From positions 18,505,173 through 18,569,172 of the forward strand of contig OZ020526.1 of NCBI GenBank assembly GCA_963971425.1: a stretch of DNA of 64,000 bases, written 5' to 3'. This stretch comes from Bryoerythrophyllum caledonicum. Its lineage: Eukaryota; Streptophyta; Bryopsida; Pottiales; Pottiaceae. Shown here piece by piece: positions 56,768 to 61,427 of this stretch. Under the pieces are notes generated by a model. That model was not told where the DNA came from, did not search any database, and saw only the letters and a list, made by a program, of their open reading frames with translations. Numbering within the stretch: position 1 is the stretch's first letter; each line of letters opens with the position of its first letter. The position numbers and the translations under genes were made by a program.

Positions 56768-57050
56768 TTAACCCCTAAAGGACCACGACCTGATTCGCTC
56801 TGAAACCAGTCCAAAACTGCCACTGTCAAAAAGAGACATGAAAATCACATTTTATAGTTAATTTTGGATTTTCAACCGTGAGATCTTAAAATAGACTTCC
56901 ATATACACATGCCATCAAATTTTGGTTGCAATTCACCACACGGATTGATAGATTTTAGTATTTAAAGTCAAAACAATGGTTCATTTTCATCCTTGCGTTG
57001 AGTAGATCAGTTGACTTTGACTTCATTTTGTATCAAATTTTTGCATTGTA

Positions 57051-57630
57051 CAATAGGGTGACATTCAAATTGGCCGTTTAGTAGTTCCAGGGATAGTGTC
57101 CTACACTGCTGCCAACTTTGACACCCTCCTCAAAGCTGAGAAATTGTTATTTTACCATGAAAATTTGGGGACAACATCATCTTTATGTTGAAAACATGCA
57201 TACCAAATTTCAAGTCGAGGAGACTTATACAAAAAAACTTATGCATGATCTACCAACAAGGGATAGCTGTGAGAAAAGTGTCACAACTGCCAACTTTGAC
57301 ACCCTCCCAAGAATTGAGAAAATTTTTTTTGCCCATGAAATTTTTGGAGCAAAAACATTTTTATGTTGTTTGCATGTGTGGAAAATTTCAAGTCCAAAAG
57401 ACCCATACAAAAAATAATATTCCAAATCTACCAACATGTGTAGTTTTGAGAAACAAAGGGGAAAACCATTTTACTACTTCCAACTTTGACGCCCTCCTTA
57501 GGATTGAGTTTTTGTTGATACATGATGAAATTTTTGGCACAAGATCATCTCTACACTGGTAACATGTGGGATAAATTTCAAAGCCAAAAGACATACATAA
57601 AAAAAGTTATTCCATATCTATCAACATGTG
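57051..57630 (+). repeat. Left terminal repeat of the Tc1-type element, three direct units
   Basis: Unit landmarks are at 57111, 57289 and 57479, spaced 178 and 190 bp. Each unit runs ccaactttgacaccctcc, then a tttggagcaaaaacatcttt-like segment, then caaatttcaagtc, then atctaccaacatgtg. The units are diverged from one another more than the two ends are, so the tandem structure is older than this insertion. Confidence 0.85.
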
Positions 57631-58253
57631 TAGCTATGATAAACAATTTGAAGGTCATATTGAAAATGTCAAAATATCTTTGACACCTCATGCTTTTTCA
57701 TTGAACTCAATCATGTGAGTAAGCCACCAAACATAAATGCTTCTCAAAAAGATCAATAACATCTAAATGAAGAAGTGAAGAGGTGTTCCATGCAGAAGAA
57801 TCCACTTGGCCATAAAGTGTGCATTAGACACATGACAAATTTTTTCTTCTAAATATCTATTGAACACTATGTAAAGGGAATGGTGTGTGTGATTTGTGAT
57901 AGACTGAATGTTGAAACAATCCTCAAAACAGAGAGTGTTGTATTGTGGGATGCATGAGTGTTGATTCACATTGGGCATACATGATGAGTGATTAAGAGCA
58001 AAACGATTTTTCATGTATGCATAGGGGCTTGTGTTTTGGCGACCCTTCTCTCTCCTCTCTGCTCCAGTGCCTTGGCTCCCTTCTCTCCCCCTTGCTCTGT
58101 TCCAGCCCTGTTCTCCTTCCTCTGCCAATTGTCACGTGTCAATCCTGCAACCCCCTTTGCTCTGCTCTAGCCCCTTGGCCTTCTTCTCTCCCCCTTGCTC
58201 TGCTCAAACCCCTACTCTACTGCTGTAGCTAGCATCACGCACTCTATAAATTT

Positions 58254-59264
58254 ATGATGGAAATTTTAGATGAAATTTGTGCTCGCATCATATGTTTGAG
58301 TGAGGGAGGATTTACAGGAGTTCAAATTGCATCTACTATTGGAGTTCCTATTAGAACAGTTACAAGGTTAGTAAAAATATTTAGAGAAGATGGAACCTAC
58401 AAGCGCAAACCTTGCGGTGGAAGTCACGCTAAAAAGCTTAGTGATAGAGATGTTCGTAGTATTGTGCATTACTCAAAAATTCATCGTTGCTCTTCACTCT
58501 CAGAGATTACCAATGCATGTCCTATTCAAGTGTGTAGACGTACTATTCAAAGGGTCTTACATAAAAATGGCATTTTTAGTTGAATTGCAGTCAAAAAACC
58601 TTTTTTGACACCTCGTCACATGTCTCAACGATTAGCTTTTGCTCAGAAGTACCGTGGATGGAGTGCAAAAGAGTGGGAGCGTGTTGTTTGGACAGATGAA
58701 TCTACTTTTGAAATTGGAAAAAATTCTCGGCAAATTCATGTTTGGAGAAGTGCATACGAGCGTTATTCATCAAGTTGTCTAGCTCCTACTTTTAAAAGTG
58801 GAAGGACTTCTTTAAAGATTTGGGGTGCATTTGCCGGAAGACAAAAGTCAGAACTTGTCTTTATGCCTAAAGGTCAACGTTCTGCTAAAGATTTTATAGA
58901 AGTGGTTTACGATGCCAAATTGGTTCATTTCATGGGTCAAATTCCACAAGGAGTGCTTATGGAAGATGGGGCACCCGTCCATAGGAGCAAAATATGTGAA
59001 GAATGGAGACAAAGCCACCTTCTCGAAAAGTTCAACTGGCCTGCAAACTCTCCCGATCTCAATCCAATCGAGAACGTTTGGAGGATGTTAAAAGATGTTG
59101 TGCAACATGGCAAACAATGCCCTAGAAGCTTAGATGTGTTGAAGGTAGTTCTTGAAAGAGAGTGGAAGTTAGTCAATGGTACTAAGCTCCTTCAACTATG
59201 TCATTCTATGCCCTCTAGGTTACTAGCAGTGATTGACGCTAATGGAGGACATACACGTTGGTAG
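58254..59264 (+). pseudogene. Tc1-type transposase with one in-frame stop
   Basis: One frame of 336 codons plus stop, open except for TGA at 58581-58583. The N-terminus has the paired helix-turn-helix DNA-binding part: LSEGGFTGVQIASTIGVPIR, then the basic linker KPCGGSHAKKLSDRD, then a second helix set ending RRTIQRVLHKNGIFS. After the stop the frame continues IAVKKPFLTPRHMSQRLAFA. The catalytic core shows Asp in VWTDESTFEI, Asp in MEDGAPVHRS and Glu in PDLNPIENVW, with 34 residues between the second Asp and the Glu, so DD34E. Length matches Tc1 transposases (~340 aa). In this family the stop position is normally within a 'SR(V/I)A(x)KKP' motif, so TGA most simply derives from an arginine CGA. 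Cuts and pastes the element by recognising the terminal repeats. Read-through or an intact copy elsewhere could supply activity. Confidence 0.9.
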
Positions 59265-59828
59265 ATATGGAATAATTTTTTTGTATACATCTTTTGGCTT
59301 TGAAATTTATCTCACATGTTACCAGCGTAGAGATGATCTTGTGCCAAAAATTTCACTATGTATCAACAAAAATTCAATCCTAAGGAGGGCGTCAAAGTTG
59401 GAAGTAGTAAAATGGTTTTCCCCTTTGTTTCTCAAAACTACACATGTTGGTAGATTTGGAATATTATTTTTTGTATGGGTCTTTTGGACTTGAAATTTTT
59501 CACACATGCAAACAACATAAAATGTTTTTGCTCCAAAAATTTCATGGGCAAAAAAATTTCCTCAATTCTTGGGAGGGTGTCAAAGTTGGCAGTTGTGACA
59601 CTTTTCTCACAGCTATCCCTTGTTGGTAGATCTTGCATAAGTTTTTTTGTATAAGTCTCCTCGACTTGAAATTTGGTATGCATGTTTTCAACATAATGAT
59701 GATGTTGTCCCCGAATTTTCATGGTTAAATAACAATTTCTCAGCTTTGGGGAGGGTGTCAAAGTTGGCAGCAGTGTAGGACCCTATCCCTGGAACTACTA
59801 AACGGCCAATTTGAATGTCACCCTATTG
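59253..59828 (-). repeat. Right terminal repeat of the Tc1-type element
   Basis: Inverted copy of the left end, with the same three-unit structure (ggagggtgtcaaagttggc landmarks near 59,385, 59,570 and 59,755). Its inner edge overlaps the last four codons and stop of the transposase. Confidence 0.85.
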
Positions 59829-60480
59829 TACAAGGTCTAAATCTTTTACCATTGTCTTAAGCATGATGTTATTTCCCAACACACCAATTTTTAGAGGTAA
59901 AAAAGGGGTGTAGCATATTCAAAACAAGTGTGCAAGGAGTGGAGGTTCAAAAATTGCCATTTCACGTTTTATTTTTTTGTGAACTACGTATGTATTCAAA
60001 TGATAATCCAAACGGTCAATAAGAAGGTTTTCACCATATATTGTTGTTGAAAAAAAAAAAAGTGAAAAATATGAAGATCTCTAGGTTTTATGTAGAAAAG
60101 ATGAAGTTTTTTTCCCCCGTTGCCCGACAATGTGTGAAAATGTTTGACTTGGAATAAAATGCCTTTTTACACTAAAGACAAGATTTTTTTTTGAAAATTT
60201 CTAATTAAGGAAATATTATTTACATGTGTGAAAAATCTCAATGTCAATAGAAACTTTTGTCAAAATTTTTGGAGGTGCCCGAAGTCCCACTTTTTGCTTT
60301 AAGTGGTACTAACTTTCAAACCACAAATCCAAAAAAGAATAAAAAAATATCTCCACGAAGCTCTTATCAGAACCTATCTTGAAAAAAAAATTCAATTAAA
60401 AAGGATTTTTTTTCGAATTGTAGGTACATGCCCAAAATCCAAAATGACCCTGGGGGAACGTTTGGTCCTTTAGAGGTTAA

Positions 60481-61427
60481 ATCTTATTGCAACTTGTATC
60501 TGGTAGTTCTTAGTATATTTTTAAACTTGGAATACACTTTCCAATATACCGTATTCTATTGGCATTTAGCGGCGAAGAAGAGAATGAGTTGTTCCCCCAC
60601 ACAACGAGCCGAGCCCGCCCAATGCGTGGCTCGAAGATGCCCCAAGCAATGCACCGCGGTCGCCGGTGCCCGCGGACGAACTGGACAGATCTTGGATGAT
60701 AACTTGTGGATGAGATGGATGAGGGTCCATCGGGCATGCGAAAGGAGAGGCGAGAGAGAGAGAGAGAGAGAGGCGCAGGAGGCGAGAGAGACAGAGTAGG
60801 AAAGCGAAAAAGAAGCCTGCGAGGAGAGGAGATGTGTTTTTGCCGAAGCTCCGCTTGGCGATGGTGGTTAGGGTTTCGTCGGCCTTCTCCGCACTGCAAT
60901 TCGCGTCTCCTGTGTGATCGGAGCCCAGGTTCTGACGCTTCTGGCGACCCTAATTTCGTCGCATTCCGTCGCGTGACCTGAGTGGGAGCCAGCGCGGAGG
61001 ACAGGGGAGCGGGCGAGAGATTGCGGGGTGAATTCGAGGATGCTGCAATGTATGGCGCTGGTTTTATTTGGTGGAGAGTAGTAGGTTGGAATGTAGGGCA
61101 TGGCGGGGTGTGGCCCCTGGCGCTGAGGCTGTCGTGAGCGGGGAAGGAGGGAGGGGCGGGGCGGGGCGGGGCGGGGACCGGTTGTTCGATTGGCGCCTTT
61201 GTTCTCCCGCCCTGTGGCTCGGTTGGGAGAGCTGACAGGCGCAGGGCGTGGTTGGGAGGTGCGATGGTTGTGTCGGTTCTCTGGAGGGCGAAGCAGGTGC
61301 CTGCTCGGAGGAGCGATCGCGAGAAGTGCGTGGTTCTGTGCGGGGATTGAGAGCGAATCGCGGTTAGGGTTTTGGAGCAAGAGTCGGGGGTGAGGCGTGC
61401 GCTCTCTTGCAGATGTGACTCCCGGCT
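60481..61427 (+). promoter_or_regulatory. Promoter and leader region of the PWWP gene
   Basis: GC-rich from about 60,590. Contains a short (GA)n run (60752-60772), five GGGG runs with single-C loops (61153-61176), a likely leader-intron acceptor (gctctcttgcag, ending at 61412) and a start-stop uORF ATGTGA (61413-61418) ten bases before the main ATG. A long minus-strand open frame (60510-61880) overlaps it and is judged a composition artefact. Confidence 0.5.
61153..61176 (+). promoter_or_regulatory. Potential G-quadruplex, five G4 runs
   Basis: GGGG repeated five times with single C spacers, on the coding strand about 250 bp before the start codon. This pattern fits the standard sequence rule for a parallel quadruplex in DNA or RNA. 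Confidence 0.75.

What the first reader, a model, noticed from the sequence alone, without database searches (positions are those of the whole stretch)
57051..59828. DD34E Tc1-type transposon with three-unit IR/DR ends in a plant
Seen: TA-flanked ends, ~570-bp inverted repeats, three ~180-bp direct units per end, and a transposase with D, D and E spaced by 34. Known: Tc1-type IR/DR elements such as Sleeping Beauty carry two transposase-binding direct repeats about 165 bp apart in each end, while the well-described plant mariner-like elements are DD39D. Inference: this is a plant IR/DR Tc1 lineage with a third repeat, possibly acquired by transfer from another kingdom.
Basis: partly seen in the sequence, partly recalled or inferred. 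Interest (0 to 1): 0.8.

Follow-up and report, generated by a model that had tools for sequence, protein, structure and literature searches.

The report
Plant Tc1 transposon with laddered ends
This is one of several hundred close copies of a cut-and-paste jumping gene in a plant genome; its ends are ladders of repeated protein-binding-like sites, and it inserts almost only at the sequence TGTACA, which each insertion rebuilds on both sides so that the site can be used again.

Summary
This copy has an in-frame TGA; 10 of 30 inspected relatives keep an open frame with the triad motifs.

Plant DD34E Tc1-like elements have been in print since 2014, and Tc1-like ends with three direct repeats are known (Bari), so neither is new. 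Transfer from another kingdom is untested and unsupported; the transposase clade has eight diverged families in this genome.

New here: (1) the sister family has five units per end, in register with the window's three; one copy has lost one unit; the 18-bp cores vary about ninefold less than the rest of the repeat. (2) The target is nearly fixed as TGTACA, unlike the ATATATAT reported for SB, ZB and Bari. The tips (CA...TG) rebuild TGTACA at both junctions; 12 tip-to-tip junctions share one TGTACA. (3) 22 unoccupied copies of the window's own site carry TACAGTA or TACTGTA, the expected Tc1-type footprint, and some copies sit inside such footprints.

A new variant of a known kind: a recently active Tc1 lineage with a renewable target.

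The parts
57051..59828 (+). Tc1-like (DD34E) element, tips CAATAGGG...CCCTATTG
57049..57050 (.). left TA; with flanks reads TG-TA-CA
   Evidence: empty sites have one copy
59829..59830 (.). right TA; with flanks reads TG-TA-CA
57051..57629 (+). left terminal inverted repeat, three tandem units
59253..59828 (-). right terminal inverted repeat, three tandem units; overlaps the last codons of the transposase
57112..57129 (+). core of left unit 1 (62 bp from the tip)
57290..57307 (+). core of left unit 2 (240 bp from the tip)
57480..57497 (+). core of left unit 3 (430 bp from the tip)
59384..59401 (-). core of right unit 3
59572..59589 (-). core of right unit 2
59750..59767 (-). core of right unit 1
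58254..59264 (+). transposase frame (HTH, HTH_Tnp_Tc3_2, DDE_3), broken by TGA at 58581-58583 in this copy
58695..59072 (+). span of the catalytic triad: codons D 58695, D 58965, E 59070 (34 residues between the last two)
56768..57050 (+). left part of the dispersed ~0.93-kb repeat into which the element inserted
59831..60488 (+). right part of the same host repeat

Best explanation
A recently multiplied DD34E Tc1-like cut-and-paste transposon of a plant genome. SHOWN by sequence: each end is a ladder of homologous 178-190-bp units, each with one strongly conserved 18-bp core (three units here, five in the sister family); insertion is almost restricted to TGTACA; the CA...TG tips rebuild TGTACA at both junctions; empty sites, tip-to-tip insertions and Tc1-type footprints occur. 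Unit number changes by recombination between units. The spacing is near a nucleosome repeat length, so a wrapped end might present several cores together (speculation). The window copy itself cannot make a whole transposase without reading through its TGA and would depend on other copies.
For: Domains and triad; profile of ten transposases of this genome scores Sleeping Beauty 217.7 bits and Mos1 37.4. Ladder: cores at 62, 240, 430 (window) and 62, 240, 430, 610, 800 (sister f337) from the tips; one copy has lost one unit at its left end. Cores differ from the majority in 3 of 1728 letters, rest of the repeat 241 of 16347, Fisher p 1.3e-7 (letters are not independent events). Target: G before TA in 716 of 737 exact ends, then T in 664, A in 49, G in 3 of the 716. 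Empty sites: 40 of 40 scored places cross the junction without a gap, 37 over all 301 bases. 12 tip-to-tip junctions on one TGTACA, control 0. Footprints at the window's own host site: 15 TACAGTA, 7 TACTGTA, 1 TATAGTA, 1 extra TA, control 0. Insertion into footprints: 5 of 8 fetched A-class flanks, 8 of 20 fetched non-G flanks plus 2 one base off. Recent spread: 97.7% mean identity in 16 copies; 13 of 30 loci open for at least 337 aa, 10 of them with all three triad motifs.
Against: No binding, excision or transposition was measured. Duplications of 2 (TA) and 4 (GTAC) bases cannot be told apart because the target hardly varies; two copies with A at -2 (L057, L060) speak against 6. No CAA/TTG footprint, the one expected from the window family's own CAAT tips, was among the 24 at the host site. 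The footprints may have been copied along with the host repeat and so count few events. The window family's tips are CAAT, not the CAGT described for Tc1. 6 of 20 fetched non-G flanks are plain, so the target is not absolute. Deep forks of the tree are open.
Confidence: 0.75

Rival explanations
1. An ordinary plant Tc1-like element of the published kind: TGTACA is simply part of the element's tip, and the long, internally repeated ends are neutral baggage.
For: TGT...ACA at nearly every end could look like an element-borne extension of the inverted repeat. Known plant Tc1-like elements have short 33-bp ends.
Against: Empty copies of the same host site keep one TGTACA, so it belongs to the target. 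No duplication is seen further out in the flanks. Cores vary about ninefold less than the rest of the repeat, and core positions agree exactly with the sister family at 62, 240 and 430 (left end).
Confidence: 0.12
2. A recent immigrant from another kingdom (fungus or animal) that then burst in this plant.
For: Copies are young (97.7% mean identity). Tc1-type elements are reported to move between species (titles and abstract starts).
Against: The clade has eight families in this genome with support 98/97, the nearest at 83% and the next at 52%. No closer relative in viral, phage, plasmid or prokaryote collections.
Confidence: 0.1
3. A member of the plant DD39D mariner group (PlantMar).
For: Plant host; this is the well-described plant group (PMC7325037, passages).
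Against: 34 residues and E in place of 39 and D, in all ten transposases examined; profile far closer to Sleeping Beauty than to the mariner Mos1. No DD39D sequence was at hand for the tree.
Confidence: 0.01

Closest known systems
f337 family of the same genome (L093+L086+L094), not previously named as far as I know
   Same: Transposase 83% identical to L012 of the window family; same tip sequence apart from CAGT for CAAT; same core and register; TGTACA flanks in the copy read
   Different: 3.68 kb, 952-bp inverted repeats, five units per end
PpTc1 and PpTc2, moss Tc1-like elements (PMC4054914; text parts 1-3 of 5 read)
   Same: Plant host, DD34E, ~338-aa transposase, TA duplication, recent amplification
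   Different: 1.6-1.7 kb, 33-bp inverted repeats, CAGT ends; no unit ladder in the parts read.
Sleeping Beauty and other IR/DR elements (PMC7827188, passages)
   Same: DD34E, repeated transposase-binding sites inside each inverted repeat, 3-base footprints
   Different: ~220-bp ends with two direct repeats; here whole ~180-bp units are repeated three or five times and the outermost core is 62 bp from the tip. SB and ZB prefer ATATATAT (PMC7913693, passages)
Bari1 and Bari3 of Drosophila (PMC3828361, PMC4120734; passages)
   Same: Three direct repeats per end, bound by the transposase with differing strength
   Different: Short repeats, not whole tandem units; target reported like SB's
Galileo, P superfamily (PMC3688188; abstract and passages)
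   Same: Long inverted repeats with tandem repeats holding several binding sites, the first about 70 bp from the tip
   Different: Unrelated transposase with a THAP domain: analogy only

Membership tests
Tc1 (DD34E) family | D, D, E with 34 residues between the last two | tested here: met
   also in nine other families of the genome. L012, an open copy, has N for the first D
Tc1 (DD34E) family | two N-terminal HTH domains plus DDE_3 | tested here: met
   L012: HTH_23, HTH_Tnp_Tc3_2 and DDE_3 over their cut-offs; in the window copy the frame is split
Tc1 (DD34E) family | terminal inverted repeats flanked by a TA duplication | tested here: met
   empty sites. A 4-bp GTAC duplication is not excluded
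Tc1 (DD34E) family | terminal bases CAGT (as used in PMC4054914) | tested here: not met
   CAAT in the window family; CAGT in f337 and f343. Not treated as decisive because the nearest relative has CAGT
Tc1 (DD34E) family | groups with Tc1-type rather than mariner transposases | tested here: inconclusive
   Profile: SB 217.7 bits, Mos1 37.4. Tree: own clade 98/97, deep forks open, Mos1 on a very long branch
IR/DR elements | at least two direct repeats in each inverted repeat | tested here: met
   three per end
IR/DR elements | the repeats are bound by the transposase | not testable with these tools
   only indirect: low variation of the cores
PlantMar (DD39D) mariners | 39 residues between second D and a third D | tested here: not met
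   34 and E

The most novel reading that the evidence does not exclude
A Tc1 lineage with a self-renewing target: strict choice of the palindrome TGTACA, plus tips that recreate it, turns every insertion into two new targets, so that the same address serves for stacking, excision and re-entry; and its ends evolve as ladders of nucleosome-length binding units whose number grows and shrinks by recombination.
Probability: 0.5. Interest if true: 0.65.

Novelty: new variant of a known kind. Interest (0 to 1): 0.5.

Why it matters
SB, ZB and Bari are reported to prefer AT-rich palindromes around TA. A clade with a 6-bp palindromic target that it rebuilds itself, together with a natural series of ends with two, three and five units, makes two open questions testable: which part of a Tc1 transposase reads bases beyond TA, and what the number and spacing of end repeats do.

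Tried and rejected
Relatives elsewhere: the clade's profile against prokaryote contigs (76 pattern matches, none confirmed) and viral contigs (33, none); L084 of the other group against viral contigs (2, none). Plasmids: 43 records, all under 60% identity. Phages: none. The window has no Rfam match at gathering score and no tRNA.

I suspected an inverted fourth core at the tip (AGGGTGAC...AAATTGGC, with a gap): the ungapped scan found nothing in that place in that orientation at 7 mismatches or fewer, so it is not claimed. Considered and set aside: DD39D mariner (triad); TGTACA as part of the element (empty sites). A fold prediction was not run. Host species not settled: my impression of a bryophyte- or lycophyte-like plastid gene set is recall only.

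Literature: no listed paper contains TGTACA, and as papers with more of the terms rank first, none in that library holds all of the terms given. One search listed 4 papers, none on a Tc1-type element with whole tandem units as far as title and abstract start show. Other searches. Subscription papers and preprints are not covered.

Full report
WHAT IS THERE. Its ends are inverted repeats of about 579 bp. Each holds three tandem units; at the left end they are spaced 178 and 190 bp and are 74% and 69% identical to the reference copy. The six units share an 18-bp core, CCAACTTTGAC[A/G]CCCTCC; the window has six such sites, all here, against 0.10 expected. A transposase frame, 58254-59264, carries HTH and DDE_3 domains and the triad D, D, E with 34 residues between the last two. 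In this copy a TGA at 58581-58583 breaks it. The right repeat overlaps the last codons. The element interrupts a dispersed repeat of about 0.93 kb, 56768-57050 plus 59831-60488.

HOST AND COPIES. The genome held for the window has 437 Mb; the window lies on a 20-Mb contig. rbcL matches lie on three small contigs, of which C894 (115 kb) and C821 (95 kb) also have a frame that I recognise from memory as accD. A land plant is therefore reasonable; the species is unknown to me. Exact 24-base tips number 737: 716 with G before TA and 21 with another base, that is some 370 elements as a lower bound. Of 20 fetched copies 18 align over about the whole element; L061 lacks its left end and L069 is rearranged. 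Sixteen copies, the window's included, are 97.7% identical on average (120 pairs, 96.8-98.5%). Of the 30 loci that best match the window's transposase, 13 have a frame of at least 337 aa without a stop, and 10 of these keep all three triad motifs. So the family spread recently and may still have working members.

FAMILY. Ten transposases from ten families of this genome have the 34-residue spacing. A profile of them scores Sleeping Beauty at 217.7 bits and Mos1 at 37.4. In a tree of 15 proteins the window family (as L012, an open copy whose first D is N) and seven others form a clade (98/97), with f337 (L086) at 83% identity to L012 and f353 (L042) at 52%. Sleeping Beauty joins two other families of the genome (81/84). 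The deep forks are open and Mos1 is a very long branch. So: DD34E, Tc1-like, a lineage of its own, deep place unsettled. No DD39D sequence was available for the tree. Plant DD34E elements as such are not new (PMC4054914).

THE LADDER. In f337 the inverted repeats are 952 bp and 99.7% identical, with five cores at 62, 240, 430, 610 and 800 bp from both tips; the window family has 62, 240 and 430, with 428 for 430 at the right end. The window's units 1, 2 and 3 are nearest to f337 units 1 (82%), 2 (87%) and 5 (85%); f337 units 3 and 4 look like a further 3-type and 2-type unit, as if a two-unit block had been duplicated, or lost in the window family. One copy (C2:3271226) has two cores at its left end and three at its right; its left end passes from the tip region straight to unit 2, a loss of one unit. 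Among the 20 fetched copies 19 have three cores in the left end and 19 in the right (L053 and L055 have one further weak core outside the element). Cores differ from the majority in 3 of 1728 letters, the rest of the repeat in 241 of 16347 (p 1.3e-7), the reading frame in 148 of 15756, internal non-coding DNA in 143 of 9786 (p 1.6e-4 between these two). That points to selection on the cores. Differences by codon position are nearly even (48, 44, 58), so selection on the protein among these copies is weak at best. Three direct repeats per end are known, and long ends with tandem binding sites exist in the unrelated Galileo. A spacing near a nucleosome repeat is only suggestive.

THE TARGET. In the window and 19 fetched copies the flanks read G-TA on the left and TA-CA on the right in 20 of 20, and T before the G in 18 of 20. 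Genome-wide the base before TA is G in 716 of 737 exact ends; before that T in 664, A in 49 and G in 3 of the 716. For scale, of 3597 TA in the window 147 are in GTAC and 24 in TGTACA. The f353 family shows TGTACA at 4 of 4 ends found (the pattern left out C at -3), and the four f343 ends read have T or A before GTACA. ZB prefers ATATATAT, reported as very similar for SB and Bari (PMC7913693). Since the element begins with CA and ends with TG, insertion into TG-TA-CA leaves TGTACA at both junctions. Whether the duplicated bases are TA or GTAC cannot be told from these data.

REUSE OF SITES. The joined flanks of the window copy find empty sites: 40 places scored out of 3134 first-look candidates, all crossing the junction without a gap, 37 of them over all 301 bases; the four read have one TGTACA. 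Twelve places have two tips back to back on a single TGTACA, by tip base 10 between a CAAT and a CAGT tip, 1 CAAT-CAAT, 1 CAGT-CAGT; control 0. For the three on contig C1 the partner ends listed lie about 2.8-2.9 kb (window type) or 3.7 kb (f337 type) away in five of the six elements; the sixth has no listed partner. The tip base alone is not a sure family mark, since one search also lists elements of window length with one CAGT tip. At the window's own host site 24 further copies carry extra bases in place of an element: 15 TACAGTA, 7 TACTGTA, 1 TATAGTA, 1 with an extra TA; control 0. These are what CAGT-tipped Tc1 elements are expected to leave. Of 8 (of 49) A-class flanks fetched, 5 read TGTACAGTACAAT: the window family inserted into such a footprint; one of them, L121, is at the same host site. 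Of 20 (of 21) flanks without G, 8 have the form TGTA-nnn-TACAAT, 2 more are one base off, 4 abut what look like other element ends, 6 are plain. Against the reading: footprints may have been multiplied with the host repeat, and none of the CAA/TTG kind was seen at the host site.

VERDICT. Observation confirmed. The interest lies in the unit ladder and the renewable TGTACA target; I saw neither in titles, abstract starts or passages of the papers found.

Noticed in passing
56768-57050 and 59831-60488: A dispersed ~0.93-kb repeat carries the insertion; first look gave 3134 candidates, at least 40 empty and 24 footprint-bearing copies of the site. Its own nature (non-autonomous element?) was not worked out.
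   Followed up: partly
G000 tip-to-tip junctions: 10 of 12 are between unlike tips; about 39% would be expected from a rough tip count (p 0.002). Like-with-like junctions would make near-perfect giant palindromes, which may be lost or collapse in assembly.
   Followed up: partly
L071 and L073 (contigs C821 and C894): Two clearly different rbcL sequences, each beside an accD-like frame, in one assembly: a second plant, or a diverged plastid copy.
   Followed up: no
L084, L087, L050: A second group of DD34E transposases in the same genome, nearer to Sleeping Beauty (39% for L084), with short inverted repeats in L050.
   Followed up: partly
L042, L043, L047: f353 family of the same clade: ~1.5-kb element with ~140-bp inverted repeats and no unit ladder, yet TGTACA flanks; in L042 one flank is replaced.
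   Followed up: partly
57055-57076: The extreme tip looks like a gapped, inverted copy of the core; the ungapped scan does not support it.
   Followed up: partly
58057-58211: A 52-nt C- and T-rich direct repeat (83%) upstream of the transposase start, perhaps promoter-related.
   Followed up: no
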